The notes below the pieces were generated by a model. That model had not been told where the DNA came from and searched no databases. It saw only the letters and a list, made by a program, of their open reading frames with translations. Below are positions 14,843 through 62,052 of a stretch of DNA of 64,000 nt, piece by piece. The translations under genes and the position numbers were made by a program. Numbering within the stretch: position 1 is the stretch's first letter; the number at the start of each line of letters is the position of its first letter. The DNA is from Branchiostoma floridae. Taxonomy: Eukaryota; Chordata; Leptocardii; Amphioxiformes; Branchiostomatidae. Where the stretch lies: NCBI RefSeq assembly GCF_000003815.2, contig NC_049988.1, positions 19,109,598-19,173,597 of the forward strand. Direction: 5' to 3'.

Positions 14843-17800
14843 ATGGCTGTAAAATGGGTGGCGAGGTTCTATCTAGTGTTGGTTGTAGTACGTTTGGTAG
14901 TGCCGTGTGTAGAGGCAGGGGACTGGCAACACTGTCAGAATGTATCACCGCTGAGATGTAGTGTTGGGGACAGCCGTAATGGTGGATCAAAGTACCGGTA
15001 TGACATTGCCGGCTATGAGTCCAGGTGGAACAGAGACCAGTATGTTTATGGTTACGGAGGGCCTTTTAAGTACAACCGCATGTACCCATCCTTCAAGTCC
15101 TGTTACGACTGTGCAAATAACGGAAGTGTGTCAGGTAGCTCTGTCACTGGTGAAGTCCAGAGCGTCACTTTAAGTCCCTCCCAACAGGACGTCACCTTAC
15201 TTGTCATAGCCGATAACAACGTTGACACAATGACTACAGATGACGCCACTGCTATCTCAAAGATGCCATGCGGTAGAGACTGTAGTCTATGGCTGGTAAA
15301 CTGTAACATAACGACCATAGAGGCAGGGGCTCTTGCTAAGCTTCCACAGGTGGAGACCCTGGTCATCTGGCAGAGCAACCTTCAGACCCTGAGAAGCGGC
15401 ACGTTTGAGGGGATGGAGGGCCTCAAGACCCTGCTGCTGTTGGGCAACAACATAACCTGTCTGGAGGTAAGATTTTAGCACGAACCTAATGCGTAAAAGA
15501 TCTTCTTGGATCTCGAGCTACAGTATACTGATAAAGTATCTTTACTTTTTGTTTGTAGTATGTATATTTTGCATGTTTATAGTCCTTTGGTCTTATGCTG
15601 CATGTATATAAACTGCAATGTAATCTATCTAATTAATTATTATATTTCAGCCATACCATATATGGTATGGTGAAATATATTGTATTTGTAATGTTTCTTT
15701 CTCCTGTCAAATCTTCAAATCGATTCATCTCCGTCGTTCCGGGACCGAATGACCTGAAATTTGGCACAAGGGTAGAGTAGGTCAATACCGAGGTGCTTTT
15801 TCTCATTTTTTACATATCTGCCTCTAAAATGATTTTATTGAAGTTTAAAGGTCACGTTTTGACCAAAACGGTATATTTTGGCCCCCTGTACCCTTGAATT
15901 ACAATGGAATGACCTGAAATTTGGTGTAGATAGGCATTATATAGTTGGTAAAATGATCCAAGTAAAATTTTTGGCATAAAACAATCTCAAATTGTTAATT
16001 TCTGCACTTTTCTGAGGGTAAATTGGTTTTCTTTCGGCCTTCTCCCGTGAACTCCCGTGACCCCAGAGCCCACACGTGCCAGGTGCCAGCGGTCTGGGGA
16101 GAGTGAGAGTTAATTACTTTATGGACGCCAGCCAATCAGCGACGAGAAAGGCGAATGCTAGTTAATATTCATAAGCGGGGCCTTGCAATCCAGTATATAC
16201 ACAAACAGATGCATATTACAGCCTTACAGGGCCACACAGTGGCCATATGTTACCCTGTGCCCGGTTTGAAATTGTAGTTTGCGAGGATTTGGAGTTCAGA
16301 CAGGGTCATTTGAGCGGCAGCGGACGGTACGCGTGCATTGAACGTTAGAATACAAGTCTGTGTTGATGAATTTACCAACATTTCGCATGGCACTATCAAT
16401 CATTTTCGCCAGATTTGACTTTGGAGGTTAGTTGAGACAATCGAGAAAATGTTACTTGGCAGAAAACAGTTTGCGTTTAGTTCTGATCTATGATGACACG
16501 TAAGTTTGACAGTGGCGAGAATGCATGTATTTTTTCCCGAACAAATGTAGGTACTTCTAGTGTTGTTGTTCTTTTTTTACGTAAACTTTGTACATTCAAA
16601 TTGTAAGTAACTTTAAACTGCCAGAGTTTGAGCCCAATAAAAGACTCTTAGTACCAGAGTATCACCACTGACCTCCGAAAAGAAACCCCCGAACAAGGTA
16701 GAAACTCCTATCCTCCAGGTCTCGCACGCTACGAGCAGGAAATTATAACACTCAGACAAGATTACGTCCGATGGCTGATTGCATACAAAGTAAAACAATT
16801 TAACAGTGGTATGCAGGGCATATACTTAACAAAGAATTCGAAGGAAAAAGAAATATATAGATAAAGCCAAATCAACTTGTTGGTCCTGAGATTTTTCAGA
16901 AAAGAAATGAAGCGACAGGGTGGTAAAATTCTTGGAAAAATTCGAGACGTCTCCGTTTATGTAATGGCTCATACAAAACAAGAAGAAGATTGAAGTTTTT
17001 AGCTTGAAAAAAACAACACTCCTACTACACAGTACCTGTACCTGCTTGTCAATTATTAAAACGTATGCCCTACTTGATTAAAAAAAGTTCACTGCAATAA
17101 TAAATGTACCTACATCACAAAGAGATTATGGCGGTACTTAGACCTAGTTATCGAAGTGGAAATTGTTGAATGGCGTCATGTAATTTCATGATGAAAATAT
17201 TCTGAATGGAAGATGCGCTTTTTTTCACTCTCGGAAAAATAGGAGCTGCCGCAATTCTAAAAACCAATCAGTTATGCATAGGCGCTCCTGTGGAATATTA
17301 TATTCTTCCATATGGGCCCGGGGCATATTGGGCAAGCTCTGTTTTGACCTGGAATCAATTCACAACATTAGTTCTCTTTTGGGGATAACTTACAGTTAAT
17401 TTTTGCGCAGGGGTGACTTGGAACAGTCCAATGTTGCGTGGGAATGGGTATGGCTGAAATATGCTGTATTTGCACCCAAGCAAATGTCGGCCTTTCTAGT
17501 TATAATAGCATTCCACATCCGCATATTGTCTAGCTTGTCAAAGGCCGAGTGTTCTCAGTCTATCAACAGTCGGGTTTTCTCCAACATAGTTCTCTCATAA
17601 ATAGTCTAAAACTCGACATTTACATTATAGGCAGGTGCCTTTGACGGCTTACCGCTGCTGCTGTCCCTCTATCTCGTGGACAACCAGATCCTGACGATGG
17701 CACCCGGCATGCTGCGTGGACTACAGCTGGACTGGCTGGACGTAAGTGCAAATTCTATCTGGTACATAGCGCCTGGGGTACTGCAGGGAACGCGGTCTGT

Positions 17801-19604
17801 ACGAAATGTCTATATCGTTAAGAACAAGCTTCAGTCAGTCAGCGTTGACATGTTTGCTGAGCTTGCAAACATGCAAAGCTTGTCCTTGCAGTACAATGAA
17901 ATCTCTTGGATTGCAGATGGCGCGTTCCACTCGAACAAGCGACTGGGTGTTCTAGACTTGGCGTGCAACAAGCTTACTTTTCTGTCAGGGCTTTGGTTCA
18001 AATCAGCAGATATATTCAAACTGAATCTGAAGGGAAATGCTATAGCCGCTGCGTATCCGGGGAGGGGAGAGTTGAGGTGGGATGTTCTATTGCTGGACAA
18101 TCCCCTGCGCTGTACGTGTGCGAACATTGGGCTGTATGAACAGTTGTGGAAGCGCTGGAAAGCGTCAAGGAGGCGTCCTAGGCACTCAGAAATATCCTTA
18201 CCAACAGTGTGTCCCGCTTCGTCCCTGATGGAATGGCCTCCTGTACAGGTGAATGTCAGCTCCCTTCCCTGCCCGGCACCGTTTGTGGAGATTGTAAGCG
18301 TAGAGCAAAATCACGAGTCCCGAGAATACAAAGTTGTTGGTAACGTGTACTGGGAGGACCTGCCCCAAGTGTCCTGGGTCTTTGCCAATGGGTCAGAACA
18401 CTCGATGGACATAATGTACAACACAAACACGACGACACACGCTAGTCTGGCAATAGGCAACCTAACTGTGAGAGTGGGGACCTACATAAGGGCTAAGGGG
18501 TGGGTGAAATGTAGGAAAGAAAGAAACCCGAGCGAAAATCGGGGGTCCAGGAAACAAGAAAAATGTTCTAACTACATGGGGAAGTCAAGCTTCTCTCTTT
18601 GGCTCAGCACCGCCAGTAACTTCTCTTTCTGGAACCTCAGCTGTTCGGCGATCTCAGGAGCCGGTTCTTATACTGCACACTTCGACGGGGGGGAGGGCTT
18701 ACACTTCTCACAACCTTTCACTACACTACAGTTACTGACACAACCCGCAAACCACACACGACCAGCAACAGCCGACACACAGCCTCTGTCTACACCCATG
18801 TCCTACATTGTCTTGCTTCCGGGCAACCATAGCCAAACGTACGTTTCCGAGTCTACATGGCTGATTGTGCTGGCTTCTTTGGCCGCTGTTTTGATGATAC
18901 TCACGAGGGTAGCATGGGAGTATACCACTGGGGTCAAATGGGCAGCAGGGCTAGAGAACAAGTCAGCAGCAGAACAGGCAATAGAGCCCCGAGAAGGCGT
19001 GGCACGATTGCCTTCTGGGTCGAGCGCGATCGTCCCTTATGCCGTAGTCTACGACAATGCAGGTGCAAACAGTGGCGACCCAGATGACCAGATTGCCCCG
19101 TACGCCATAACGTACGATGTCGAAGACGATGAGATCACACCGTACGCTGAAGGTCACCTCCGCGATCACGACAGCTTGTGCGAGTCAGACGCTTCTGACT
19201 CTTCGGAAGCTGTCCCGTACGGTGTGAGTAAGCTGTGCGACAAGTATGTCAGTGGTGACCGTACAGAAACCCGAGATAGCACGCCTGGTACCTATAGAAG
19301 CGACAACGCGGCTAGTGGGGGCCCCGTTTCCAAAATGTATGGCAAAGATGAACTGAAGGAAACTATTCTAGATGATTCCGTGTCGGTTAGGGTCCTCACT
19401 GATCAGGGAAGCCCTTTCCCTCTGCCAAACTCCGACCGTAGCGAAGCGACTTGCTCCGCGGCCTCTTCGCTACCAGAGGCCGCCGCGGATGGTCCTCACG
19501 CCACTACCCCGAAAGGGACCGAAACACCCGGGCCCGAGGAGTCCGTTATGGACGACTCAGGAAGCAAGCAGGGCGGTTCTGTATCTGTATCTGTATCTAT
19601 ATAG
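14843..19604 (+). CDS. Leucine-rich-repeat type I membrane protein, complete
   Basis: Two exons, 14843-15466 and 17631-19604, joined at phase 0 (CTGGAG|GTAAGA ... TTATAG|GCAGGT), give 865 aa. Residues 1-25 are a signal peptide ending ...CVEA. A Cys-bearing N-terminal region (26-100) leads into LRRs of the xxLxxLxLxxN type (roughly 105-360), capped by an LRRCT module beginning DNPLRCTC (~365). A second extracellular region with many N-glycosylation sites follows, then one membrane span (~616-638, WLIVLASLAAVLMILTRVAW). The ~225-residue tail repeats acidic PYA-type motifs: VPYAVVYD, APYAITYD, TPYAEG, VPYGVS (~676-736). Such LRR-TM proteins with repeated PYA tyrosine motifs form a large family in amphioxus; the role is presumably recognition or adhesion with tail-based signalling, but no ligand can be inferred. 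No TIR, Ig or kinase domain is present. The intron splits the LRR array. The last codons fall in a dispersed repeat. Confidence 0.9.
15641..15679. repeat. Short palindrome in the LRR gene intron
   Basis: TATATTTCAGCCATACCATA is followed by its near-perfect reverse complement ending TGGTATGGTGAAATATA. It opens a stretch (15690-16060) with two copies of GAATGACCTGAAATTTGG that looks like an old dispersed repeat. Confidence 0.7.
16061..17630 (+). other. Rest of LRR gene intron
   Basis: No exon recognised. At 16131-16210 there is a CCAATCAGCG box, a GC-rich patch and AGTATATACA about 60 bp later, which could be a promoter-like cluster, but nothing downstream is clearly a first exon. Confidence 0.3.
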
Positions 19605-23449: not shown

Positions 23450-23457
23450 TGTGTTCT

Positions 23458-23909
23458 TAGGGGTGGGTACCGGTACAGAAAATTCAGGTCCAGGTCCGGT
23501 TCAGGTCCAGAGGATCAGGTCCAGGTCCGGACCTGAACCTGGACCTGATTCAGTATGTGAAAACTTATGAATGGACGATACTCAAAACAATGGTTCATTT
23601 TGCTACAAAGAAATCTGTTTTGTGGAGTATTCAACTCCCACTGGCATTTTAAAGTTCTACAAGGCTAACTGCCTCTGTACGATTTACTGTAAAACTTGGT
23701 AGAAATGACTATAGACTCTATTCTGCTTCGCCCTTGTTATTTTCGTCGACCCAAAACGTGTGAATACCTAATCATATAAGCTGTTTATTGTCCAATAGGT
23801 CCAACATCCGGTCCATCTAATTTTTTCAGGTCCGGTTTTTCCGGACCGGTCCAATAAGAAAAACCGGTTTTGTACCGGTACACCGTAACGTTACCGATAC
23901 CCAGCCCTA
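23458..23909 (+). mobile_element. Full-length hAT-type MITE, 452 bp
   Basis: Ends TAGGGGTGGGTACCGGTACA and ...GTTACCGATACCCAGCCCTA. It is flanked by a perfect 8-bp target duplication TGTGTTCT (23450-23457 and 23910-23917), the hAT signature. No coding capacity. Inside are nested GGTCCAGGTCCGG runs near both ends. Confidence 0.95.
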
Positions 23910-27081: not shown

Positions 27082-27089
27082 TTCCTGGT

Positions 27090-27524
27090 TAGGGCTGGGT
27101 ATCGGTACAGTGTACCGGTACAAAACCGGTTTTTCTTATTGGACCGGTCCAGAAAAACCGGACCTGAAAAAATTAGGTGGACCGGATGTTGGACCGATTA
27201 GAAAATTAACAGATTATTTTATCAAGAATTCACACGTTTTGGCGCTTGCAGGTGGAAGAAAATAACAAGTGTGACGTAGAGTAGAGTTTATAGTCATTTC
27301 TACCAAGTTTTACGGCCAATCGTACAGGTGCAGTTAGCGTTGTAGGATTTTAAAACGCCAGCTATAAGTCTAAATACTCCAACAAACAGATGTATTTGTA
27401 GTGAAATGGATCATTGGTATGAGTCATATTGAATCAGGTCCAGGTTCAGGTCCGGACCTGGACCTGATCCTCTGAACCTGAACCGGACCTGGACCTGAAT
27501 TTTCTGTACCGGTACCCACCCCTA
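27090..27524 (-). mobile_element. Full-length hAT-type MITE, 435 bp, reversed
   Basis: Same family as 23458-23909 in opposite orientation. Perfect 8-bp target duplication TTCCTGGT at 27082-27089 and 27525-27532. Starts TAGGGCTGGGTATCGGTACA, ends GTACCGGTACCCACCCCTA. Confidence 0.95.
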
Positions 27525-29750: not shown

Positions 29751-29784
29751 GCAAAATCCCGGCTACATGCATGCGAGGGACGGT

Positions 29785-30960
29785 GACCTGTGTGGTTGGC
29801 TTCACATTGGTTTGGAGAGTGACCTGTATATTTGGGGTTGGCCTTACCGTGGTTTGGACGGTGACCTCTGTGGTAGGCTTTACCGTGGTTATGAGGGAGA
29901 CCTGTATATTCGGGGTCGGTTTTACTGTGGTTTGGAGGGTGACCTGTACATGTAGGGTTGGCTTTTCCGTGGTTTAGAGGGTGACCTGTACGTGTGGGTT
30001 TGGCTTAGGGTGACCTGTACATGTGGGGTTGGCTTTACCGTGATTTAGAGGGTGACCTGTACATGTGGGGTTGGCTTTTCCGTGGTTTAGAGGGTGACCT
30101 GTACGTGTGGGTTTGGCTTAGGGTGACCTGTACATGTGGGGTTGGCTTTACCGTGGTTTAGAGGGTGACCTGTACATGTGGGGTTGGCTTTTCCGTGGTT
30201 TAGAGGGTGACCTGTATATGTGGGGTTGGCTTAGGGTGACCTGTACACGTGGGGTTGGCTTTACCGTGGTTTAGAGGGTGACCTGTACAAGTGGGGTTGG
30301 CTTTTCCGTGGTTTAGAGGGTGACCTGTACGTGTGGGTTTGGCTTAGGGTGACCTGTACATGTGGGGTTGGCTTTACCGTGGTTTAGAGGGTGACCTGTA
30401 CATGTGGGGTTGGCTTTACCGTGGTTTAGAGGGTGACCTGTACATGTGGGGTTGGCTTTACCGTGGTTTAGAGGGTGACCTGTACATGCGGGGTTGGCTG
30501 TTCCGTGGTTTAGAGGGTGACCTGTACATGTGGGGCTGGCTTTACCGTGGTTTGGAGGGTGACCTGTGTGTGGTTTTACCGTGGTTTGGAAGGTGATCTG
30601 TACATGTGGGGTTGGCTTTACCATGGTTTGGAGGGTGACCTGTGTGGCTGGCTTTACCGTGGTTTAGAGGGTGACCTGTACATGTGGGGTTGGCTTTTCC
30701 TAGCCTGACTAAAATCAAGCCCCTAGCGGCCGGCCCGACAATTGCCGCCACCCGGGGGGAGGGGGTCATTAAGCCCAGCCGGCGAGAGCTTGTGTAAACA
30801 CAGGCTAGGCTTTTCCGTGGTTTAGAGGGTGACCTGTACATGTGGGGTTGGCTTTACCGTGGTTTAGAAGGTGACCTGTACATGTGGGGCTGGCTTTACC
30901 GTGGTTTAGAAGGTGACCTGTACATGTGGGGTTGACTTTACCGTGGTTTGGAGTGTCTGT
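29785..30960. repeat. 42-bp minisatellite array
   Basis: Unit GGGGTTGGCTTTACCGTGG + TTTAGAGGGTGACCTGTACATGT, about 25 copies, some shortened. 42 is a multiple of three and the unit is stop-free in several frames, so repeats read as 14-residue peptides on both strands (for example WGWLYRGLEGDLYM). It is interrupted by a MITE at 30701-30807. Confidence 0.95.
30701..30807. mobile_element. 107-bp MITE inserted in the minisatellite
   Basis: TAGCCTG...CAGGCTA ends, GC-rich middle, flanked by a perfect 9-bp duplication GGCTTTTCC (30692-30700 and 30808-30816) taken from one minisatellite unit. Confidence 0.9.
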
Positions 30961-33111: not shown

Positions 33112-33544
33112 TAGGGCTGGGTACCGGTACAGAAAATTCAGGTCCAGGTTCGGTTCAGGTCCAGAGGATCAGGTCCAGGTCCGGACCTGAACCTGGACCT
33201 GATGGAGTATGACTCATACTAATGGTCCATTTCACTACAAAGAAATCTGTTTGGTGGAGTATTAGACTTACACTGGCGTTTTAAAATCCTACAACGCTAT
33301 TTGCACCTGTGCGATTGGCTGTAAAACTTAGTAGAAATTACTATAAACTCTACTCTACTTCACTCTTGTTATTTTCTTCCACCTGCAAGCGCCAAAATGT
33401 GTGAATGCCTGATAAAATAATCTGTTAATTTTCTAATCGGTCCAACATCCGGTCCACCTAGTTTTTTCAGGTCCGGTTTTTCTGGACCGGTCCAATAAGA
33501 AAAACCGGTTTTGTACCGGTACACTGTACCGATACCCAGCCCTA
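33112..33544 (+). mobile_element. Full-length hAT-type MITE, 433 bp
   Basis: TAGGGCTGGGTACCGGTACA ... GTACCGATACCCAGCCCTA with a perfect 8-bp target duplication CCACTGCT (33104-33111 and 33545-33552). Confidence 0.95.
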
Positions 33545-33604
33545 CCACTGCTCTTTATTACCCGAATTTAAGCTGACGGCAGTTAATGGAGAACTGTTAT
33601 GAAG

Positions 33605-34245
33605 TGGGTGACCTGTAGATGTGTGGTTGGCTTTACCGTGGTTTAGAGGGTGACCTGTACATGTGGGGTTGGCTTTTCCGTGGTTTGGATGGTGACCTGT
33701 ACATGTGGGGTTGGCTTTACCGTGGTTTGGAGGGTGACCTGTACATGTAGGGTTGGCTTTACCGTGGTTTAGAGGGTGACCTGTACATGTAGGGTTGGCT
33801 TTACCGTGGTTTGGAGGGTGACCTGTGTGGTTGGCTTTACCGTGGTTTTGAGGGTCACCCGTGTGGTTGGCTTTACAGTAGTTTGGAGGGTGACCTGTGT
33901 GGTTGGCTTTACCGTGGTTTGGAGGGTCACCTGTGTGGTTGGCTTTACAGTAGTTTGGAGGGTGACCTTTGGGGTTGGCTTTACAGTAGTTTGGAGGGTG
34001 ACCTGTGTGGTTGGCTTTACAGTAGTTTGGAGGGTGACCTGTGTGGTTGGCTTTACCGTGGTTTGGAGGGTCACCTGTGTGGTTGGCTTTACAGTAGTTT
34101 GGAGGGTGACCTTTGGGGTTGGCTTTACCGCGGTTAGGAGGGTCACCTGTGTGGTTGGCTTTACCGTATGGTTTGGAGGGTGACCTTTGGGGTTGGCTTT
34201 ACCGCGGTTAGGAGGGTCACCCGTGTGGTTGGCTTTATCGTGGCC
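33605..34245. repeat. Second minisatellite array, 42-bp changing to 36-bp unit
   Basis: It starts with 42-bp units like the first array, then from about 33820 uses a 36-bp version (GGTTGGCTTTACCGTGG + TTTGGAGGGTGACCTGTGT) that lacks the TACATG part. Both lengths keep frames open (12-residue repeat such as VGFTVVWRVTCV); no start, signal or domain context supports a gene. Confidence 0.95.
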
Positions 34246-41035: not shown

Positions 41036-44000
41036 ATGAGGGTTCTCCGCATCATCTTGCTTGGTTGTGCGGTACTCCTTTCTGCTTCCATGTCAGGTTC
41101 GGATAGAACGCTTCACTCATCCCCCATATTCATAAACCAAGAAATAAAGGGGAAATAATATTCCTGTTTCTGTTTTAAAAGATGTATAGAAATTGTTGTC
41201 GAGTTGAGAAACCATCGCCGTAGATTGCTTCCAATTAATAAAACAGCATTTAAAAATGATGTATGGGAATTTGTCAACTTGAAATAAATAGGAAACTGTG
41301 CTCATTTTTTTAAAAGTTACACATTGCGTGGCTTTGCAATCAAACATTGTGCAGCACTTAACAACTAGTAGTGCTTATTGGGAACAACAGAATGTCAATT
41401 TTGGCTGGTTTCAGTATCTAGAGCTTACCGGTTACTTAATATTTTCCAATAATATTTTAATTGCATCGATTTGAGTTTGGTAGACGTTTTGCTCATGCTA
41501 GAATTGACCTATATGATACATGCACATTCATATATAGAACTATAGCTTGAACATTCTTTGACAAATGTTTTACAGTAAATAGCACTGCCAGTATTATGAT
41601 TTGGAAAGCTTAAATCTGGAACTTAGAAAGCTACATATCATCAGCTCTGAATATGTTTAACTTATCAGTTGTTTTCCACTATATGTAATATAGCTGACAG
41701 CAGCAAGGAGCATGCAAGTGAGACTGAGAGTGTCGAGTACAGCCTTCTCGATATACTTGCAGGTAACTATCGATATCACGATCTTTGATGTACGTTTTGA
41801 CAGTGCTTGAATATGATTCAGTCAAAACCCAGATACGTTCTAATTGTGTTCAAATTGAAATTAAAGCGTTAAAGTTTTGTTTTTAGTATAAGAAGTAAAA
41901 TGGACTAGAATGAGTAAAGATATTGTGACCAAGAAACAATGCATCTTTTGTTGCAGGAGAAGAAAGTATTCGTGTCCGCAGGGCTGCTGATGACGCAAAG
42001 ACCGATGACGCAAAAAATGATGACAAAAAGAGTGAAGACCCAAAGACCGATGAGGCAAAGACCGATGAGGCAAAGACCGATGACGGGCTCATCAGAAAGA
42101 CAGGTTGTGAGGGCCACCAGGTACCTTCCAATGCCAAGATGACAGAAACAGTGATCCTTTCAGAAATTCAAACAATAAGTATCTTCACTATCACACAATA
42201 ATCATCATAAAGTCTGCTTTTAAGATTTATGTCATGTAAATATGATTAAGTTTGATTAATCAATAGGGCACTTTAAATGTCTTTGGTCTCAGTTGTTAGA
42301 TCTGTGTATGAAACCTTTTTTTCAAAATGAACTTAAAATCTCGGATTGGCATGATAAATTCGTGAAAACAAACAAAAAAGCCATTACCCGTAGTGCTGTT
42401 ACTTGCTCAGGCTGTTTTGCCATTTGTCAAGGCCTCCTCCACTGGATGACAACCTAGCTGCGTCCTAAATTTGATTTGTTTAACCATTGATTTCATAACC
42501 GGAATGTGATAGAGGATGCAAAAGTACGATTAAAAACCATTGAAAAAAGTTGTTCTTTATATACATAATTCGTTGAGCGCTCTTTTAAAATTCAGTTCAA
42601 CGCCCTATTTGAATGAGGATGAAAACCAACAAGGGCTGTCAGCCCTCATAGGATGGTCAAATGTCCGAAGTCGAGGACTCTTGTTTTTTTCCTGAGCAAA
42701 GGAATTGTCTTAACTCGAACATGTTGTATCTGTTAGCTGAAGGTATGTTACCTTACAGACAGGAGACCAGTGGGGTTCGTCTGATCATGACAACTGCATC
42801 TGCGGAGGATCTGACACGACCTGCTATCATGTTGACTGCCTTCCCGGTTCTAAAGTTGTCCGTGACTCCAATGGCCTGTGGAACTGTAAAGTTGATTCAT
42901 CCAAACAAGGCAAGGCAGTTGATAAACAGCGATATGGGATTTCTTTTCATAAACTGAGAGAGTCTCAGAGTACTCATACTTGGAATTGGCTAATTCTTTG
43001 TAAATTTAGCACAATCTTGAATTTTGAATCACAAACTTGCACAACCTCAAGGCTAGTCAAGTGACATTAATCCCATATAGAAACCACATGGTTTTGACTA
43101 CCTCATTTGGTCCAGCACTGAGTCTATTGCCTTTCACTGGATAAGTTGCATACTAGATTGCTATTTTTTTTGCTTAGCACGAATGTACAGTGGGGCAAGG
43201 AGACACAAGGACGCCAAGAGTAATCGTATCCTTGTGTTGTTTCAGGATCAATCCCAAAGGTGAAAGTGTACGGCAATGCAAAGGTAATTATTACCTATTT
43301 CATGTTACACAGAATCTCACAATTTGTATATTCTTATTCATTTACCTGTACTGATGAATATATCACATAATGATACTTTTTATATGATTTTTGAACTTCT
43401 ATTTGTTGTAGGGAGCGAAGATGAGTGGAGCCGACGCATTTGGTGTGTTCTCAGGGATTTTTGGCCTATTTGCATTCGCTGTTGACCGCTACGAGTCTCA
43501 ACAAACGACGGCGCAGCTTAATGAAATACAAGGTAACATTCGGGCAGTGGAGGAGAAGGTTGACGATTTGGCACGAAGCATCAGTGACCTAGGCGTGCAG
43601 ATGGATTACCTTTCCCAAATAACACGGTACGTCAGAGACATCCAAAAGCTGAAAAACGCACGGGACACCTGCCTGATAATACGAACCAACGACAATGGAC
43701 AGTATGACCTACCTGGCGGCGACGCTCAACAATGGGCAGACCGCATCGTGGATGACTTTGACGGCATGAGACTTGTATGTGTACATTTTATTGTACTTTA
43801 GTAGAGTAGATGCATTTTATGGGGGTCCATGGACCTTGGACTGCCAGTGACTGAAACATAAAATTATGATTGTTGTTCAGAACAAGCCCATTGTCTAAAG
43901 AACAACCCAATCCAAGCCACTTTATTGTATGTATCTAATCTCATACTGCCTCATTTAGATTGTGGCTAGATTAAACTACTCACACTTTGAATTCACTTGG

Positions 44001-46983
44001 ATGCGTATCATTATATATATGTACAAGCATTAAGGTGTTCCAGTTCACCTTGTCTTCCAAATAGCACCCGAAGATCGAAGATGTCTTGAAGGTTAATCCT
44101 TGTGGTGGTGGGAAATTTTCACTATACATTTTCCCAATGCTGGGCGTTTAAGACCCTTTGGAAAGTAGGGGTACTGTTTTCACTATGTTACATTTTTGAA
44201 AAATAGAAACCTTAAGCTTTGTAATGGTATATAATTTCATAGGATCATTTGGAAGGAAAGCCGCGAACAAAAACGTAGCATAGTGAATACAGTACCAACG
44301 TATGCTTCCCAACATATGTTGGGGGCAGCACAACAAGCTTAAGGGTAAGTCTTTCATATATGACCTTGGTATCTACTTTAATAAAAGATCGGGAACCATT
44401 GTAGAATGGTGGATTTGCTTGGAGCACATTGAGGACTTTTATTGTTTTCAACTTTCGTTAACGTTGATTTCGATCCATTTCAATTTTTGTTACAGATATT
44501 GAAAAATCTCGGAGATATGATAGACCCACAAGACAGAATTTTCAATGGAAAATCTCTGTTTCAAATATATACTGAAGAACTTGATAAGCTGAAAGATAAT
44601 GGGGATCTACAGGAGAACACTGCAGCTGAATGGGTATACATCCTCTATCTTTTTGCAATCTCTATTATGATTATAACTTTCTCATAACCCCGAGTTCCGA
44701 TGATTAGGTGCACGGCTAGAAGACTGGCAAAAATCAAATACACCAATTTTCCTACCGTTCGCCGTTCATTGAAAAATCTTACTTTCATTACTTTACCTTA
44801 CATTACTGAACCTCATTTATTGTCGGAATGAGATTTAGTTACTTGTATAATCGGGCAAAAATGCAGGGAAAAGCTTGACACGTTTACATGTACCTTCGCA
44901 TGCACTGACTATTTTACAATAATAATGCCCTCTGAGGGATATTCTGCACTTTTTGTGCTCTTGAGTTTGCCCAGAAGTCAGTTTGGAATACACAACAGTA
45001 CAAAGGACATTTTATCATATAGCCAATAGTTTAAAGCACCGAGTAAAGAACTGGCTTTAGCAGTTAGAGGTGCCCTGTAAACATGCCCTGACTTGTATTT
45101 TGCTTGTACATATTGAAACCAATGTTAATTTTCACATATAGATGCAACTAAAAACCCAGGAGGTCTTTGCCCTTTTGGGAACTGGATACGACATCTGGAT
45201 TGCAGCTCTGAAAATCAAAGGGCGTCTAGATGACATTCCAGTCATAACAAAAATGGGGATAACAGCGATCAACGAAGCGAATGAAATCCTGCAAGATCTT
45301 CTTACCTATGTCTCCGGTAAGTTTTCATGCTGACATTAATTTTATGTGACAAAAAATCCAAATCTTGGACTGGGATCTGGCATGCGTGTTTATACTGCAG
45401 AATTATCTCCCATAAAAACATGATATTGATCAATGATAATTTGACAGCAAGCTTGTATAATAAAACATGAAATGTTACAACATCTAACATGTAAATGTCC
45501 GTCCAGTTATAAACTGATCGAGGTATTACAGAGCATTCGGCATTAAATATACCATCTAAGCCATTACCTGGGACTAGCCAAAAGGCGACACCAACACTGT
45601 GAAACTGAAAACTGCTAACAGCAATTCAACTTTAACCCATCAAATGGGAGTGCAATTAAGCAATCCAATGGCAACACTGTTTTCAGCTGTTTATGTAATA
45701 CTATATTTGCTTTTTCATTACATCACAGTATACTGTCTTTCTGTTTCATAGCCCTAGACTCAGTCTGCCCTGATGGCTATTCTCTCCACAATGATGTCTG
45801 CTACAAGGTGTTTAAGGAAAGTAAGACGTATAGTGATGCATCCACATTTTGCTCACTTCAAGGTCCGTTTGGAAGGCTCGCCATGGCAAAAAATAGTGGC
45901 ATAAATCAATTGATTGCCCGGCTTAAGAACGATGCATGCGAAAACTGCTATATCTTTTTTGGCCTAAAACAACGTCGGAATGAGGGAAGCTGGACATGGG
46001 CAGACGGGTCTGAGCTAGGCTCCTTCAACGACTGGGCACCAGATGAACCCAACGATGGTGGTGGTTGGTGGTGGGGATATCGTCGAGGACTGCAGAACTG
46101 TGGAACGTTTCAGCCAGACAACGAATGGGATGACTATCAGTGCAGCAAGAGCCTGTACTTCGCTTGTGAGGTGGCCCCTTCTTCACGTAAGCTGTTAATT
46201 CTTTCTTGACCTTTAGATTACCCAGTGGTCATTTGATACAGAAATGGGTCTGGTACATGAATTGCTGTACATTAATCTCTCATCGTATCTCAATCATGAG
46301 TCTATTCCTGAATACAATGTAATATCATTAGTGTGAAGTACTTTTGCTGTTAAGCTCGCAAACTAAGCGAGCAGAGAGTATACTCTTTATGATATCATAG
46401 TAAGCAAGACATGCTTATTAACAAAAATGTTACAGAAAAAAGCAGCATCTATTACTTAGTCTGGTATAAAGTGTGAAATGTTGGAAGGATAATATGCAGC
46501 TCTTGCCCGAACACTTCTGACTGAATGTAGCTTGAATCCAGATCAGAGTTATACCATCTTCCTGCTTCAGTAGTACATAACTTCATTTGCTTAATTCATT
46601 ACATCTAAAGACGATGAACACAATATGAAAATGTATGACGATCTTTTTTATGCTCTTTTACAGAAATCGCATGTGAGGGTGAAACTTTGCAGCTACGTTG
46701 CTTACCGGGAAAAAAGATCCGTGTCGAGTCCGCAAGCTATGGCTGTTATCACAGTTATAACAGTTTGAACCCATGTAAACATGTCAGACATGATGGGAGC
46801 CACTTTTTTGGCGAACGTCCAACTTATTTTTCCTGTTCTTGTAAAGCAGATGACAGCGACCGCATTGTACAGGACAAGTGCGAGAATGAAAATCACTGTT
46901 TGGTGAGGGCAAGCAATCTAAACTTTGGTGATCCTTGTCCTCATAAAATCAAGTACTTGACGGCAGAGTATTCCTGTGTCTAA
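41036..46983 (+). CDS. Secreted multidomain lectin: CTLD plus SUEL/rhamnose-binding lectin, complete
   Basis: Ten exons: 41036-41096, 41694-41762, 41957-42120, 42759-42909, 43246-43283, 43412-43774, 44496-44633, 45142-45316, 45752-46186, 46664-46983; all phases join, giving 637 aa. Residues 1-20 are a signal peptide (MRVLRIILLGCAVLLSASMS). Residues ~60-92 are a charged repeat of KTDDAK/KTDEAK units. Residues ~93-145 hold six Cys (CIC, then C-x4-C) resembling a VWC or pacifastin-like module. Residues ~149-386 are a helical region: a Gly/Phe-rich hydrophobic stretch (GVFSGIFGLFAFAV), a coiled coil, then more helices; I cannot name it. Residues ~392-526 are a C-type lectin domain with an EPN motif and WDDYQC in place of the usual WND. 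Residues ~533-637 are a SUEL domain (IACEGETLQLRC ... DPC ... KYL). Both lectin domains bind carbohydrate in other animals, so an extracellular glycan-recognition role is inferred. The exon 4 donor is GC; exon 3/4 ends are ambiguous by a few bases. Confidence 0.85.
42910..43245 (+). other. GC-AG intron of the lectin gene
   Basis: The exon ends CAAG and the intron starts GCAAGG, the usual strong context for GC donors. Only this site leaves one base, as needed to join GA at 43246. The nearby GTTGAT (42888) is in the wrong phase. Confidence 0.7.
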
Positions 46984-47815: not shown

Positions 47816-48810
47816 CTATCTTAGAAGTAGACAAAATATGGTTACTTTGTGACTATGCTTTGTATTATCATATATCGTAGATACAGGCACACAATGTTCT
47901 TCTTTTGAGACAATCATACCAACTTTACTTGGTGAAAAATTGGCAACACTTGGATTGGGATTTCTTGAATCTGTGGAAGACAACATGTCTTAGGAAATGG
48001 TGGTTTTATCATAGAAGTAGACTCTGCGCCAATAGAATATATATATTTGTATTGCTTATTGTTACTTATGTAGATATAGGCACACTATGTCCTTCTTTTG
48101 ACAGAATCACACAAAATTGTTTGGCGAAAAATTGGCAACACTCGGATTGAGTTTTCTTGAATGTTCGGTAGACATCAATTGTCTAAGGAAATGGTAATTC
48201 TGTCTTAGAAGTAGACGCTGTGCCAGTAATTATATATACTTGATTATTGTTACCTAATATTTAGATACAGGCACACAATGTCCTTCTTTTGACAGAATCA
48301 TACTAATTTTTTTGGTGAAAAATTGGCAACACTCGGATTTACTTTTTTTAATGTATGGGAGACATCAATTGTTTAATAGGAAATATATTAATGGTGGTTC
48401 TGTCTTGGAAGTAGACGCTGTGCCAGTAGAATTTTATATACTTGCTTATTGTTACTTATTTAGATACAGGCACACAATGTCCTTCTTTTGACAGAATGAT
48501 ACAATATTTTGGGGGTAAAAAATTGGCAACACTCGGATTGAATCATGTCTTGGGAAAAATTGTCTAAGAAAATGGTGATTCTGTCTTAGTAGTAGACGCT
48601 GTGCCAATAGAATTATATATAATTGCTTATTGTTAGTTATACTTATTTAGATACAAGCACACAATGTCCTTCTTTTGACAGATTCATACCAAGTTTACTT
48701 GGTGAAAAATTGTCAGCACTTAGATTGAGTTTTCTTGAATGTTTGGTAGACAACATGTCTTAGGAAAATGTGGTTTTGTCAAAGAAGTAGACGCTATGCC
48801 AATTAAAAGT
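47816..48810. repeat. ~190-bp tandem repeat, about five copies
   Basis: 'acaatgtccttcttttgacagaatcata', 'gtgaaaaattggcaacactcggatt' and 'agaagtagacgctgtgcca' recur at about 47893, 48082, 48274, 48473 and 48662 (spacing 189-199 bp). Confidence 0.9.
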
Positions 48811-53820: not shown

Positions 53821-56800
53821 TCATTCTGGCTTCCTAAAATACCTGAGTACCAGGTAACCTAAGTACCTGAACACAAACATGATGCCCAACATTACCACAA
53901 TATTCACCCACATCGGAAACGTCGCTCCTAACTGTTGCAGTACCTCCTCTGGAGGTATGTGTACTGTGGGCAACGAAGGTGGTACCATCGTGGCATTCGT
54001 GACCATGGTATTACTTAGAGAAGTTGTGGCTTGAGTCGTAGTGTTAAGGATCATTTGTGAGGTGGAGTTTATGGCTGAAGCTGAGCTAGTGAGGACAGAG
54101 CCGAGGGTAGTGGCGGCTGCAGTTCCGATGTTACCGACCGTTGCCTCTGTTGAAGTTGAGTTCATGGCATCGATACAAGTGTTGTACAAGGACTTGTCTG
54201 TGCTGCACCTGGAAACAGAAATAAAACACTATTGATTTAATTCTTAATAATTGATTATCTTAAATTAAGAGAGATAGGTTATCAAAAAGCAACCAAGTCA
54301 AATATATTTGTTTGTACAGCATTGTATAATGTATATACAGGGCGCCATCCTAACACTGTGTGGAGTTTAAATCCTTAAATTCTAAGTTGAAATGAGGAAT
54401 TCTGAGGCTTCTTGAAGGGCAAAATTACTGTCAGACAAGTCACAGTTGCAGACGATAGCCACATGTGAGCTAGTAGCATCCCTGGTCAATCTGAAATTTA
54501 TGCTTCTCAGAGGATCACTGACTGACTGACTGACAAACATTATTATTACAAATTGCAATTATGTTTAAAGTATTGCCGCTTGAAGAATCTGTCTGTCAAC
54601 TTGATATCATTATGATCTTGATAGCCTGTTTTCCAAAGCAACAGATATAGGTTACCCTGCGGATAAAGGTGAACTAACGTTACCTGTAGAGATGGTCAGG
54701 ATTGTAATTTCTTCTTCTTGTGCAAACGAACAAATAAACAGATCACCTACCTGTAGAGATGGTCGGGAGTGAAGTGCACACTGACTGACTGACTGACTGA
54801 CTGACTGACAAACAGATAACCTACCTGTAGAGGTGGTTGGGAGTGAAGTGCACATTGAGCTGAGCCTGGAAGGAGTAGTTGAGAAAGGCGAAGTACTGCA
54901 CCCAGTCCAGCCAGAAGGGGATGTCTGTGTTGTAGAACCCTCCGAGCAGCAGATTACTCAACATGAACACCGACACGGCGACTAGGCCCTCACGGAACTC
55001 GAAGAACACTGAACTCATAAAGAAGCCTATGGACTGGGGAGAGGAAAATACAAGGAGGTACATGTAAGAATTAATTCGTTCGTTTGTTCATTCCTCTCTT
55101 CCTTCCTTCCTTCATTCAACTCGTATCAAAGAACCCTCCCAACAGCAGATTACTCAACATGAACACAGACACAGCGACTAGGCCCTCACGGAACTCGAAG
55201 AACACTGAACTCATGAAGAATCCTATGGACTGGGGAGAGAAGAGCACAAGGAGGTAAAAATTCATTCGTTCGTTCGTTCATTTGTTCATTGACAGCCATT
55301 CAGCCAGACAGACAGACAGACAGAAAGAAGGGGATGTCTGTGTTGTAGAACCCTCCAAGCAGCAGGTTACTCAGCATGAACACAGACACAGCGACTAGGC
55401 CCTCACGGAACTCGAAGAACACTGAACTCATGAAGAACCCTATGGACTGGGAGAGATAATACAAGGAGGTAAAAATTTGTGCGTTCCTTCGTTCCTTCCT
55501 CCCTTCATTCATTCATTCAACTCGTGTTGTAGAACTCTCCCAACAGCAGATGATTCAACATGAACAGGGACACGGCGACTAGGCCCTCACGGAACTTGAA
55601 GAACACTGAACTCATCAAGAACCCTATGGACTGGGGAGAGAAAATACAAGAAGGTAAAAATTTGTGTGTTCCTTCTTTCATTCCTCCCTTCCTTCCTTCA
55701 TTCAACTCGTATTAAAGAACCCTCCCAACAGCAGGTTACTCAGCATGAACACAGACACGGCGACAAGGCCCTCACGGAACTCAAAAACACTGAACTCATG
55801 AAGAACCCTATGGACTGGGGAGGGGAGAGAAGAGTACAAGGAGGTAAAATTCAACTAATGTCAATCTGACTCATTCATTCATTCTTTCAGTCATTCATTC
55901 AATCACCCACTCAATAAACCATTCATTCATTCATTCCTTCACTTGCTCAATCACCTACCCACTCGCTCGCTCNNNNNNNNNNNNNNNNNNNNNNNNNNNN
56001 NNNNNNNNNNNNNNNNNNNNNNNNNNNNNNNNNNNNNNNNNNNNNNNNNNNNNNNNNNNNNNNNNNNNNNNNNNNNNNNNNNNNNNNNNNNNNNNNNNNN
56101 NNNNNNNNNNNNNNNNNNNNNNNNNNNNNNNNNNNNNNNNNNNNNNNNNNNNNNNNNNNNNNNNNNNNNNNNNNNNNNNNNNNNNNNNNNNNNNNNNNNN
56201 NNNNNNNNNNNNNNNNNNNNNNNNNNNNNNNNNNNNNNNNNNNNNNNNNNNNNNNNNNNNNNNNNNNNNNNNNNNNNNNNNNNNNNNNNNNNNNNNNNNN
56301 NNNNNNNNNNNNNNNNNNNNNNNNNNNNNNNNNNNNNNNNNNNNNNNNNNNNNNNNNNNNNNNNNNNNNNNNNNNNNNNNNNNNNNNNNNNNNNNNNNNN
56401 NNCATTCATCTATTCCCTCCTTCCGTCCAACCTCACCTGTGCAGTGAGTGCACTCAGCATGAGAAGAATCCATGTAGAGAAGAAACCAGCAGCATTGCCG
56501 AACCCACACATGGGATAACACACTGAGATCATCACAGTGGGGAGGAGCAGCATGAGGGGAGCCTCGCTCGTCACCTTAGCCAGGTAGTAGGATGACAGGC
56601 GGTAGGACCCAGCCAGCCGCTCTTTGTTCACCACAAGTCTCTCTGATGGAACTGTTAAAAGAATAAATGCAGAAATACCTTTATTTTCAACTTTCTTCAC
56701 GACAAGTGTCACGACAATTGTCAACTAAGGTCTGCCTGCACATTTCTAAACTATCTAAAGTAATGTTAATGTTATATGTAAATGTCTTTATGTTGTCCTT

Positions 56801-59800: not shown

Positions 59801-62052
59801 CTGTGAAACAACCAGAGGGGTGAGTAGAACAAAAAGAAACAACATGCCAACACCCAGGATCGAACCTGGGGCGGCAGATTACAAATCCAACATGCAAACC
59901 ACAACACCAAAAGCTCAGAGCTGTTGGCGTGGTCAGTTTGGCAGCGCTTGAACCCCACTGTTACACCTGCACCAAACACGTGTCATATCTGACTGGAAGA
60001 TTAGTTCGCAGATTAGTTATTGAATAGTGGTTATTGTTTGGCTCACCTCTCCATCCGCCATGAGTAGCAGCTTGTCAAACATGTGGTATATCTGACTGGA
60101 GGGTTGGTGGATGGTGGTGACCACAGTCTTGTTGTGCTGCTCTGTGTAGTGCTTTACTGTTGTCATCAGGCTGTAGGCTGTGCTGGAGTCCAGCCCGGAC
60201 GTCGGCTCCTGGAGACGGGAAAATAAACTTGTAAAATCGTGTGGCGCAATGGCCCATAACCCATAGGTTCTGGGTTCAAATCCGTTGATATGCCACTGCA
60301 ATTGCAATTCAGGCCTTAGGCTGCAACAGTTTTTTAATCTAATAAACCATTTCATTCAAACCTTTTCAATGACATTCATATTGACTGTCCTTGCACTGTA
60401 TAGGACTTTCCTCACTTCATTCAGGACAAAATGCAGGACGTTAAATGGAGGTCCCGTGTTTGAGAATATTCTACACGGGCGAGCACATATAAGAACCCAG
60501 CACAATTATTGAAATTTGTGGGGGTCCTTCATGNNNNNNNNNNNNNNNNNNNNNNNNNNNNNNNNNNNNNNNNNNNNNNNNNNNNNNNNNNNNNNNNNNN
60601 NNNNNNNNNNNNNNNNNNNNNNNNNNNNNNNNNNNNNNNNNNNNNNNNNNNNNNNNNNNNNNNNNNNNNNNNNNNNNNNNNNNNNNNNNNNNNNNNNNNN
60701 NNNNNNNNNNNNNNNNNNNNNNNNNNNNNNNNNNNNNNNNTACCAAGAAGTGGTCCATGTGGCCTTGCACTGACCCATCTTGTTAAAAAAAGGAAGGAGA
60801 TAGATGTACAGAGGATACAGGCTATAAGTACAGGGAATAGCAAAAGTCTGTGAGAGCTTTCAAAATATAAGTTTGACTCACATCCAGTAGCATGAGAGAA
60901 GGGTCTGTGAGCAGCTCACTGGCGATGTTCGCTCTCTTCTTCTCACCGCCAGACAATCCTCTTTTCAGATCTGTTCCTATCACTGAAAAATAGGCAAACA
61001 TGCAACATTAGCTATAAAAAACAGTCAACTTGATATTATCAATACAATTACTATTAGTATTGTTGTCATTGTACTGTAAATGCATTTAAGTCCGCAAGGG
61101 CTTCATTTTTTGGTCTCCAAGACAGAGACCTCTTGTCTGTCATGCGCGACAGAGTCATCTGGAGGGACTTCATAGCGTCACCAGATGGATGACTAAACTG
61201 AACTGAACTAATTTTGTGGTAGCAGGAAAATGGAGTGTGTGTGGTGTTTTTGCATTCACTGTAATGCCATATACTGTAGTCACATACTGTAGTGAAAATG
61301 TTTGTGGTGGTTCCGAGTTAGATTTTCGCATTTATAGAAGATTCACAGGGTTTGATTGACGCAAGCAATGGGCTGATAGGCTTAATAGGTATGTGCAGTG
61401 TGAGGTTCGTCCTTCTTCTCACGAAGCATATTTCAACAATCTATTATTCTATCATTGTCATCATGTATACATATGTGCCGTAAATACATGTAATACATAT
61501 TTTCTTGAATGTAGAAGATTACTCACATGTATCCAGACATTTCCTAATGTCCAGGGCATCCACGATTTCCTCAACTTTTTTCTCCTTCTGATGGTACGGC
61601 ATCTTCTCTGGCAGTCTCAGCATGGCTGTGAACTGGTAGTTGGGAAAATATGATAGCAAAATCAGCTCGGAAACTGTTCAATTATGATTGTGTCTACATT
61701 TGTATATCTGTCTATGGCAGTCGTAGCATAGCTGTGAACTGGGGAGTCAAACATAGCAAAATCAGCTCTGAAACTGTGGAGTAATATTGCCTCTACAACA
61801 TGTACCTGTCTCTGTCCGTCTCAGCATGGCTGTGGACTAGTGTGAACTAGACGTCCTACTATACCAAAGACTTGTTCCTCTGTTTCTAAGACATTATGTG
61901 TAAGAATAAGACTCACCATAACTGTCTCCCTGAGTGTAAGGTTCTCTAACAAGATGTCCTACTGTACCTAAGACTTCTTTCTCTGTTCCTAAGCGTTATG
62001 TGTAAGAATAAGACTCACCATAAGTGTCTCCCTGAGTGTGAAGTTCCCCAAA
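53821..62052 (-). CDS. ABC transporter subfamily G half-transporter (5' partial)
   Basis: Exons in reading order: 62019-62052+ (enters gap), 61527-61632, 60882-60982, 60047-60208, 59664-59757, 59227-59290, 58623-58780, 58124-58197, 57528-57677, 57029-57086, 56437-56651, 54825-55033, 53821-54208. All phases join; 592 residues follow the first junction. Order is NBD then membrane domain, as in the White/ABCG group: [10 protein letters not shown], signature LSGGEKKR, Walker B LMLLD joined to D-loop EPTSGLD, H-loop TTIHQPSS, a Ser/Asn-rich linker (58623-58780), six spans beginning [19 protein letters not shown], a Thr/Ser-rich glycosylatable last loop and a [11 protein letters not shown] end. Such proteins dimerise to export lipids or other hydrophobic substrates; substrate unknown. 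The [13 protein letters not shown] and [16 protein letters not shown] segments resemble ABCG14/22-like members. Walker A is not visible: it lies in the 62053-62502 gap or beyond the window. Several exon ends are tandemly duplicated in the introns. Confidence 0.93.
54649..54683. mobile_element. Solo end of the GGATAAAGGTGAACTA MITE
   Basis: TAGGTTACCCTGCGG followed by ATAAAGGTGAACTA matches the right end of 49269-49517; no left partner nearby. Confidence 0.6.
54776..54810. repeat. (ACTG)n microsatellite
   Basis: Seven or more ACTG units 15 bp from the donor of the 54825-55033 exon; a shorter run is at 54519-54534. The 'acctacctgtagagatggtcggga' phrase at 54747 repeats the end of that exon, another exon-end copy. 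Confidence 0.85.
55128..55245 (-). pseudogene. Truncated copy 2 of ABCG exon 54825-55033 with acceptor
   Basis: Minus strand: CTCCCCAG acceptor, then TCCATAGGATTCTTCATG through TTGAGTAATCTGCTG and GGAGGGTTC, after which the copy ends. About 110 of 209 exon bases are present and there is no donor. Confidence 0.9.
55318..55460 (-). pseudogene. Truncated copy 3 of the same ABCG exon
   Basis: Longest partial copy: it continues to 'tacaacacagacatccccttc' before ending. The acceptor reads TCTCCCAG (one C fewer). Confidence 0.9.
55522..55645 (-). pseudogene. Truncated copy 4 of the same ABCG exon
   Basis: Acceptor CTCCCCAG retained; coding changes include a loss of one AGT-type codon region (ATGTTGAATCATCTG). 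Confidence 0.9.
55708..55835 (-). pseudogene. Truncated copy 5 of the same ABCG exon
   Basis: Acceptor CCTCCCCAG retained; a 3-bp loss changes the GAGTTC region to 'tttgagttccg'-like. Further copies may be hidden in the gap that starts at 55973. Confidence 0.9.
55870..55972. repeat. (ATTC)n/(CACT)n microsatellite
   Basis: Simple repeat running into the assembly gap, the probable cause of the gap. Confidence 0.9.
55973..56402. other. Assembly gap (430 N)
   Basis: Estimated-size gap within the ABCG intron that holds the exon-copy array. Confidence 1.
57784..57931. repeat. Copy of the 'TACTGTAAATGC' inverted-repeat element
   Basis: Begins ACTGTAAATGCATTTTC and ends TTCTGCATTTACAGTA, inverted ends, with GTTCGTGGTGGTTT inside; in an ABCG intron. 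Confidence 0.85.
59846..59928 (-). mobile_element. tRNA-like SINE head in an ABCG intron
   Basis: Minus strand has a perfect T-arm CCCAGGTTCGATCCTGGG and an A-box-like TTGGTGTTGTGGTTTGC. No matching acceptor stem. Confidence 0.6.
60234..60533 (+). mobile_element. tRNA-derived SINE, plus orientation
   Basis: Head GTGGCGCAATGGCCCATA and B-box TTCTGGGTTCAAATCC, then body 'gactttcctcacttcattcag', 'ttaaatggaggtcccgtgtttgag', the reverse complement of the copies at 31200 and 32875. It runs into a gap. Confidence 0.75.
60534..60740. other. Assembly gap (207 N)
   Basis: Within an ABCG intron; the flanking exons (60882-60982 and 60047-60208) join in phase, so no exon needs to be missing here. Confidence 1.
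61073..61345. repeat. Split copy of the 'TACTGTAAATGC' element
   Basis: The ends match 13640-14075. An unrelated ~105-bp segment (about 61105-61210, 'ggtctccaagacagagacc') is inserted after the first 35 bp. Confidence 0.6.
61690..61855 (-). pseudogene. Two partial copies of the 5' end of ABCG exon 61527-61632
   Basis: 61700-61780 and 61805-61850 repeat 'ggcagtctcagcatggctgtgaact' plus adjoining intron ('agcaaaatcagctc(t/g)gaaactgt'). The first has lost the exact acceptor (GGGGAG in place of GGTAG on plus). Confidence 0.8.
61911..61960 (-). pseudogene. Duplicate of the 3' end of the ABCG '..LTLRETVM' exon, possible mini-exon
   Basis: 61917-61958 reads [14 protein letters not shown], followed by a GTGAGT donor and preceded by an acceptor-like TACAGTAG. 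It would splice at phase 0 to 61632 exactly like the exon at 62019. It could be an alternative or remnant exon. Confidence 0.6.

What the first reader, a model, noticed from the sequence alone, without database searches (positions are those of the whole stretch)
41036..46983. Unusual secreted protein combining a charged repeat, Cys module, helical domain, CTLD and SUEL lectin
Seen: ten exons join in phase into 637 aa with a signal peptide and five recognisable or distinct segments. CTLD and SUEL domains are each common in invertebrates, but I do not know this combination with the central ~240-residue helical region. That region has a Gly/Phe-rich hydrophobic stretch followed by a coiled coil, a layout that in other proteins may mediate oligomerisation or membrane insertion. 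An immune or mucosal glycan-binding effector is one hypothesis.
Basis: partly seen in the sequence, partly recalled or inferred. Interest (0 to 1): 0.75.

Follow-up and report, generated by a model that had tools for sequence, protein, structure and literature searches.

The report
Mix-and-match lectin family in amphioxus
This gene, probably from amphioxus, belongs to a family of predicted secreted proteins that share one unclassified helical core but seem to carry different sugar- or microbe-recognition domains at their ends, which suggests a modular innate-defence system that could be tested directly.

Summary
Ten exons (41036-46983) join in phase into 637 aa: signal peptide, acidic repeat, six-Cys module, ~240-aa helical region, CTLD and SUEL. 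It is not a one-off. The helical region has only scattered coiled-coil matches in Pfam and PDB, but recurs at 12 further close loci and about six divergent ones in the window's own genome, mostly with the same Cys module upstream. The modules behind it differ: CTLD at five other loci (one followed by hevein-like and pentraxin exons), two pentraxins at one, hevein-like exons at two. Kringle (two loci) and PAN/tectonin/SUEL (one) lie further downstream; whether in the same gene is unproven. The window CTLD's five best genome matches (986 candidates, 150 scored) are those five CTLDs. Its SUEL is closest to an SP-CTLD-SUEL locus elsewhere. Module borders are compatible with phase-1 exon shuffling. 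Most likely this is a secreted, oligomeric recognition lectin; membrane activity of the core is inference only. No expression or other-species data were available, and nine literature searches listed no description of the family.

The parts
41036..41096 (+). Exon 1: start codon and signal peptide (MRVLRIILLGCAVLLSASMS)
   Evidence: strongest hydrophobic 19-mer of the chain; similar SP-like stretches in paralogue locus L043 (E 0.10) and in the C8 SP-CTLD-SUEL locus (E 0.021)
41694..41762 (+). Exon 2: start of the acidic pro-region
   Evidence: splice sites and phase 1-1
41957..42120 (+). Exon 3: RVRR furin-type site (aa 49-52), acidic 15-bp repeat (41989-42085), first Cys of the Cys module
42759..42909 (+). 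Exon 4: Cys module (six Cys with exon 3; weak TILa resemblance), GC donor
   Evidence: alignment A3; TILa E 0.032, below cut-off
43246..43283 (+). Exon 5: short linker into the helical region (GSIPKVKVYGNAK)
   Evidence: needed for frame; not looked for in paralogues
43412..43774 (+). Exon 6: helical core part 1: Gly/Phe-rich hydrophobic helix, about five 3-4 heptads (by eye), third helix, conserved W
   Evidence: (A1); AF2 single-sequence model mostly helical but low confidence
44496..44633 (+). Exon 7: helical core part 2 (DMIDPQDRIFNGKSLFQIY motif)
45142..45316 (+). Exon 8: helical core part 3 (LLGTGYDIWIAALKIKGR helix), ends phase 1
   Evidence: (A2)
45752..46186 (+). Exon 9: C-type lectin-like domain, phase 1-1; EPN kept, WND changed to WDD
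46664..46983 (+). Exon 10: SUEL/rhamnose-binding lectin domain and stop codon; YGR changed to YGC, DPC and KYL kept

Best explanation
The gene encodes a secreted multi-domain lectin belonging to an expanded family in this genome. Members share an N-terminal part (signal peptide and acidic stretch where seen, six-Cys module, a ~210-240-aa helical core). Different members carry different recognition modules behind it, apparently acquired through phase-1 exon shuffling. Proposed working: the coiled-coil core assembles chains into oligomers; the C-terminal modules (here CTLD plus SUEL) bind surface glycans of microbes or mucus with high avidity, agglutinating or opsonising them. The conserved hydrophobic helix lies in the core of the oligomer or contacts membrane. 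Shown here: gene model, paralogue family, shared core and Cys module, differing modules downstream. Supported but not proven: that each downstream module is spliced to the core, and the module phases. Inferred: secretion, oligomerisation, glycan binding, immune role. Speculative: membrane contact.
For: Gene model and domains. Helical core at 12 close loci besides the window (11 with exon-6-like sequence, one with only exon 8) plus about six divergent loci. Cys module upstream on the same strand: within 3.3 kb at 10 of 12 exon-6 loci, 7.5 and 18.7 kb upstream at the other two (three of the matches run over a stop, probably into an intron). Phases: exons 6 and 7 begin in phase 0 and exon 8 ends in phase 1 in the window and copy A; exon 8 also ends in phase 1 at E and J; CTLDs of A, F, G, H and M have phase-1 acceptor and donor. 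CTLDs of five family loci are the five best genome matches to the window CTLD, of 986 candidates with 150 scored. Pentraxin, hevein-like, kringle, PAN and tectonin modules at other loci. Purifying selection on exon 6 in four recent pairs, dN/dS 0.23-0.27. Solved CTLD relatives include collectin-11, SP-D and conglutinin, though LY75 ranks first and snake-venom lectins are mixed in.
Against: No RNA, protein or binding data. Window-copy sugar-site motifs are partly degenerate, so glycan binding by this copy may be weak or changed. The window copy has the longest branch among close members (1.14) and dN/dS of 0.45-0.97 to the eight copies printed, so it may be drifting or under changed selection; pairs C/K (0.79), E/K (0.74) and C/E (0.64) are high too. 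The phase scan was a home-made heuristic: several modules also show candidate sites in other phases (hevein-like and first pentraxin exon of A), and some exons show no scored site (B's second and K's second hevein-like exon at the first threshold). Two loci show decay: an in-frame TAG in exon 6 at C19:5.107, and no exon 6 or 7 found at C19:4.94. No RXRR site in the acidic ORFs at A and M.
Confidence: 0.6

Rival explanations
1. Lectin-targeted membrane-active effector: the helical core is an alpha-helical membrane-inserting module (layout like alpha-pore formers or apolipoprotein-L-like proteins, both recalled), and the C-terminal lectins direct it to microbial or other cell surfaces.
For: Conserved Gly/Phe-rich hydrophobic helix with 19-residue Kyte-Doolittle maximum of 1.5 or more in 8 of 12 aligned copies, invariant GxGY and W in the exon-8 helix, heptads between them, probable secretion with an acidic pro-region, one core with varied C-terminal modules.
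Against: No significant relative among pore-former families in Pfam or PDB: Bacillus HBL only at E 0.075, among many coiled-coil chance hits. Copy J's helix is amphipathic rather than hydrophobic (max 0.94), and divergent L047 shows none in the part read. No usable fold (pLDDT 50).
Confidence: 0.27
2. Non-immune extracellular-matrix, mucus or egg-coat lectin: the core is a structural multimerisation neck only.
For: SUEL and tectonin lectins occur in egg coats (recalled). Weak TILa similarity of the Cys module recalls gel-forming and matrix proteins.
Against: Variation of recognition modules among paralogues (hevein-like, pentraxin, CTLD, SUEL) fits recognition diversity better than one structural role; not tested.
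Confidence: 0.2
3. Two adjacent genes or a mis-joined model: the helical part (exons 1-8) and the CTLD-SUEL part (exons 9-10) are separate transcripts.
For: No transcript evidence. CTLD-SUEL exists without the helical part at C8:5.866 Mb, with its own signal-peptide-like exon.
Against: No in-frame ATG between the preceding stop (45616) and exon 9, though a separate first exon further up is not excluded; phases match. Five other loci have helical exon 8 followed 0.4-0.8 kb later by the CTLDs most similar to this one.
Confidence: 0.06

Closest known systems
Collectins (collectin-11, SP-D, conglutinin)
   Same: Secreted; oligomerising stalk followed by a CTLD (recalled); among the best-scoring solved CTLDs
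   Different: No collagen Gly-X-Y stretch; a ~210-240-aa helical core and Cys module instead; extra SUEL domain
SUEL / rhamnose-binding lectins (CSL3 and others; latrophilin lectin domain)
   Same: C-terminal domain aligns over full length, DPC and KYL kept
   Different: YGR became YGC; longer, Cys-containing loop after it; a single SUEL domain on a CTLD/helical protein
SP-CTLD-SUEL locus at C8:5.866 Mb of the same genome (L060)
   Same: Same order of signal-peptide-like exon, CTLD, SUEL; its SUEL is the closest to the window's in this genome, 49%
   Different: No Cys module or helical core found in the 2.6 kb read
Mollusc FREP/CREP/GREP and coiled-coil C1q or fibrinogen lectins (as described in PMC8878817, passages seen)
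   Same: Same idea: a shared N-terminal part or coiled coil joined to different recognition domains
   Different: FREPs use Ig domains and the others a coiled coil of variable length; no relative of this helical core is mentioned in the passages seen
SE-cephalotoxin-like proteins (recalled lead only)
   Same: From memory: hydrophobic helix plus coiled-coil N-terminal region in secreted invertebrate proteins
   Different: No sequence was compared here; function of that toxin is unknown (PMC4986456, passages seen)

Membership tests
C-type lectin-like domain proteins (PF00059) | Pfam Lectin_C over cut-off | tested here: met
   E 3.5e-11, 44.2 bits versus cut-off 22.6
C-type lectin-like domain proteins (PF00059) | Canonical Ca2+/mannose site: EPN, a Glu near the next Cys, WND (motif recalled) | tested here: inconclusive
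   EPN kept; NEDC of the paralogues is LQNC here; WND became WDD. CTLDs of A, F, G, H and M have EPN, NEDC and WND
SUEL / rhamnose-binding lectin (PF02140) | Pfam SUEL_Lectin over cut-off, full length | tested here: met
   E 8.7e-12, profile 1-80 of 80; aligns with CSL3 and latrophilin
SUEL / rhamnose-binding lectin (PF02140) | YGR and DPC/KYL sugar-site motifs (recalled) | tested here: inconclusive
   DPC and KYL kept, YGR is YGC
Collectin | Collagen-like Gly-X-Y region | tested here: not met
   Translation shows none
Alpha-helical pore-forming proteins | Sequence or fold match to a known alpha-PFT | tested here: inconclusive
   No significant Pfam or PDB match; fold prediction too poor to search
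Alpha-helical pore-forming proteins | Membrane permeabilisation | not testable with these tools
   Needs protein
SE-cephalotoxin-like | Homology of the helical core | not testable with these tools
   No general eukaryotic protein collection; only PDB, profile libraries and prokaryote/phage/plasmid/viral sets available
New in-genome family (Cys module + helical core) | Same core with the Cys module upstream | tested here: met
New in-genome family (Cys module + helical core) | Same exon phases | tested here: met
   Compared for copy A (exons 6-8, CTLD); exon 8 end also at E and J; CTLD also at F, G, H, M; other loci not compared

The most novel reading that the evidence does not exclude
A previously undescribed animal defence family in which one conserved, membrane-active helical core is naturally paired by exon shuffling with many different glycan-recognition modules (CTLD, SUEL, pentraxin, hevein-like, perhaps kringle, PAN and tectonin), giving a combinatorial set of targeted antimicrobial effectors in a chordate without adaptive immunity.
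Probability: 0.2. Interest if true: 0.85.

Novelty: new variant of a known kind. Interest (0 to 1): 0.6.

Why it matters
Amphioxus is known for new domain combinations: PMC12373286 (passage seen) repeats that B. floridae has the highest number among eukaryotes. Here a single conserved, unclassified helical core organises a whole set of combinations, so its function can be asked once for a family of about 13 or more loci. If the core oligomerises or permeabilises membranes, this would be an invertebrate-chordate counterpart of collectins and pentraxins built by module exchange.

Tried and rejected
Prokaryotic or plasmid relatives of the core: none confirmed in the prokaryote collection by pattern scan (45 stretches matched a pattern, none confirmed by tblastn) or in plasmids by tblastn; viral contigs and phages were not searched. 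Known domain for the core: Pfam and PDB hits were scattered coiled-coil matches; the best were DivIC (best E 0.00016 among 12 copies), laminin gamma-1 (E 0.0043) and, with the window core alone, the protein ThreeFoil (E 0.0031), none taken as kin. Fold of the core: AF2 on exon 6 alone gave pLDDT 50, so no fold search was run. CTLD-SUEL pairing as the novelty: rejected, since CTLD and SUEL also lie side by side at C8:5.866 Mb. Furin processing as a conserved feature: not supported, since the three acidic ORFs seen at A and M lack RXRR; other loci not seen. A tree does not resolve the window copy (no starred set holds it). RNA families and tRNAs in the window: none at the thresholds used.

Literature: nine searches listed no paper whose title or abstract start describes this family; the amphioxus immune-repertoire paper I looked for by DOI is not held.
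Full report
What is there. The window lies at C10:19109598-19173597 of a 513.4-Mb assembly of 431 contigs. Ten exons between 41036 and 46983 join into a 637-aa open frame. Eight introns are GT-AG, intron 4 is GC-AG with a good GC donor, and the exon-1 donor looks weak. Phases at exon ends are 1,1,0,1,0,0,0,1,1. Segments: signal peptide; acidic region with a furin-type RVRR and a 15-bp repeat of 6.5 copies; six-Cys module; helical core (about 149-386); CTLD; SUEL. Pfam confirms only the last two. The Cys module shows a sub-threshold TILa match (E 0.032). There are no N-glycosylation sequons in the chain.

The core is a gene family. Using the helical core as query on the own genome gave 32 matches at E<=1, and the core of copy A gave 41. 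These resolve into 13 close loci: the window, A C10:2.636, J C10:1.915, F C19:5.107, H C19:5.071, M C19:4.942 (exon-8-like only), B C7:18.754, D C7:18.786, K C7:18.668 (start of exon 6 missing), C C7:19.520, I C7:19.558, G C16:14.028 and E C5:28.154 Mb. About six divergent loci follow: C5:22.093, C11:9.483, C11:9.503, C4:31.167, C146:0.015, and the weak C4:9.008 (E 0.015), which however has a Cys module 1.2 kb upstream. D and I have near-identical downstream sequence and may be a segmental duplication or unmerged haplotypes, so the gene number is uncertain. The tool states that counts of large families are lower bounds.

Shared N-terminal part. Alignment A1 (exon 6, 12 copies) has invariant L60, Y73, G96 and W108 (window exon numbering). 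A2 (exon 8, 11 copies) has 11 invariant residues, mostly in LxGxGYxxWxxALxIxxR. A3 (Cys module, 9 copies) has invariant Q, two W, N, Y, V and five Cys. The Cys module lies on the same strand within 3.3 kb upstream at 10 of 12 exon-6 loci, and 7.5 and 18.7 kb upstream at J and K; at B, D and E the match runs over a stop, probably into an intron. dN/dS of exon 6 (NG86; 11 copies compared in pairs, pairs with pS of 0.6 or more not printed) is 0.26 (D/C), 0.23 (H/F), 0.27 (B/D) and 0.23 (B/K), which points to purifying selection; but D/K is 0.47, C/E 0.64, E/K 0.74 and C/K 0.79 (K covers only about 82 codons). The eight printed pairs with the window range from 0.45 to 0.97, so the window copy evolves faster; it also has the longest branch among the close copies in the tree (1.14).

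Different C-terminal modules. Behind exon 8, which ends in phase 1 in the window, A, E and J (no donor was scored in B), follow: CTLD at the window, A, F, G, H and M; at A also a hevein-like exon and a two-exon pentraxin; at J two pentraxins; at B two and at K three hevein-like exons. Pentraxin matches are strong (best E 8.2e-28). The hevein-like matches are all below Pfam's cut-off: E 0.00022 (A), 0.0012 (B first), 0.0039 and 0.013 (K first and second), none for B's second, K's third not tested; so that name is tentative. CTLDs at A, F, G, H and M have phase-1 acceptors and donors. For the other modules my heuristic scan finds phase-1 acceptors for the pentraxin, PAN, tectonin, SUEL, kringle and some hevein-like exons, but also candidate sites in other phases (notably A's hevein-like and first pentraxin exon), and none for K's second hevein-like exon; so phase 1 is compatible, not proven. 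D has a kringle (E 6.1e-25) 4.5 kb after exon 8, and I a near-identical ORF 3.2 kb after. E has PAN (E 1.8e-6), tectonin repeats (best E 3.5e-23) and two SUEL domains with YGR over about 10 kb. Whether D, I and E carry these in the same gene is not shown. For C no module was found in the 4 kb read.

Why exons 8 and 9 belong together. Searching the genome with the window CTLD gave 986 candidates, 150 scored. After itself, its five best matches (42-48% identity, E 5.7e-36 to 1.4e-29) are the CTLDs at F, M, G, H and A, each lying 0.4-0.8 kb after a helical exon 8. Thus CTLD and core have most likely been inherited together. The SUEL exon has another history: its best relative (49%, E 3.4e-10; 102 candidates scored) is at C8:5.8656 Mb, right after a CTLD and a signal-peptide-like exon resembling the window's. 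So CTLD plus SUEL by itself is not unique to this protein.

Ligand sites. The window CTLD keeps EPN but has WDD for WND and LQNC where the five family copies have NEDC. The SUEL keeps DPC and KYL but has YGC for YGR. The motif meanings are recalled. So sugar binding is likely for the family and uncertain for this copy.

How it may work. A 3-4 heptad run in exon 6, judged by eye, is kept in the close copies, which argues for oligomerisation. The hydrophobic helix before it has a 19-residue Kyte-Doolittle maximum of 1.5 or more in 8 of 12 copies, including the window at 1.68. The other four are L041 (1.44), J (0.94), L047 (0.83, start possibly not read) and K (0.11, first part missing). This helix could be the core of a bundle or a membrane-contacting segment. 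Nothing here decides between them: only scattered coiled-coil matches in Pfam and PDB, and a poor single-sequence model (pLDDT 50.1). I favour an oligomeric secreted recognition lectin (0.6), with membrane activity of the core as a serious rival (0.27); the two are not exclusive.

Known context. PMC12373286 (passages seen) reports that the lectin C-type domain is over-represented among dispensable amphioxus genes, describes ApeC proteins with several carbohydrate-recognition domains, and says B. [quoted passage not shown] PMC2575513 (passages seen) reports extensive new domain combinations in amphioxus innate receptors; the words lectin and CTLD do not occur in its main text. PMC8878817 (passages seen) reports rotifer lectin architectures and cites mollusc FREPs, GREPs and CREPs; its secreted SUEL lectins lacked accessory domains. 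Nine literature searches listed nothing describing a core of this kind. The library is limited and the absence is weak evidence.

Limits. No transcript, no other animal genome and no general eukaryotic protein collection could be searched, so taxonomic spread, expression and relation to cephalotoxin-like or other invertebrate helical proteins are open. 

Noticed in passing
L060 (C8:5864801-5867400, minus strand): Separate signal peptide-CTLD-SUEL locus without the helical core in the 2.6 kb read, with a signal-peptide-like exon resembling that of the window gene; a further Cys-containing ORF follows.
   Followed up: partly
window 14840-19601 (+): LRR protein gene (LRR_8 in both ORFs read) with a long tail after the repeats.
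   Followed up: partly
window 23456-23909, 27086-27524, 33112-33547: Three copies of a ~440-bp dispersed repeat, 82-94% identical, the middle one inverted; probably a transposable element.
   Followed up: no
window 9307-10040, 29778-30953, 33603-34243, 54913-55853: Large tandem-repeat arrays, several open in many frames; likely minisatellites.
   Followed up: no
window 47873-48803; L050 6331-6973; L039/L040 11709-12135: A ~190-bp tandem element (translated TGTQCPS...) lies downstream of the window gene, and similar translations appear downstream of two paralogues: a repeat family near these loci.
   Followed up: no
window 60017-60355 (-): ORF resembling an ABCG-type transporter segment (recalled), no Pfam match at E<=0.01.
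   Followed up: no
L053 2992-3345 (C19:5.107 Mb): In-frame TAG inside helical exon 6 of this paralogue: possible pseudogene, polymorphism or assembly error.
   Followed up: no
C19:5074933, C19:5100991, C10:2630044, C16:14030389: Additional, more divergent Cys modules 1-5 kb upstream of family loci on the same strand; locus M also has two acidic exon-3-like ORFs. Some members may have two Cys modules.
   Followed up: no
L057 and L059 (C7:18.79 and C7:19.55 Mb): Near-identical sequence incl. kringle ORF at two C7 loci: segmental duplication or unmerged haplotypes.
   Followed up: no
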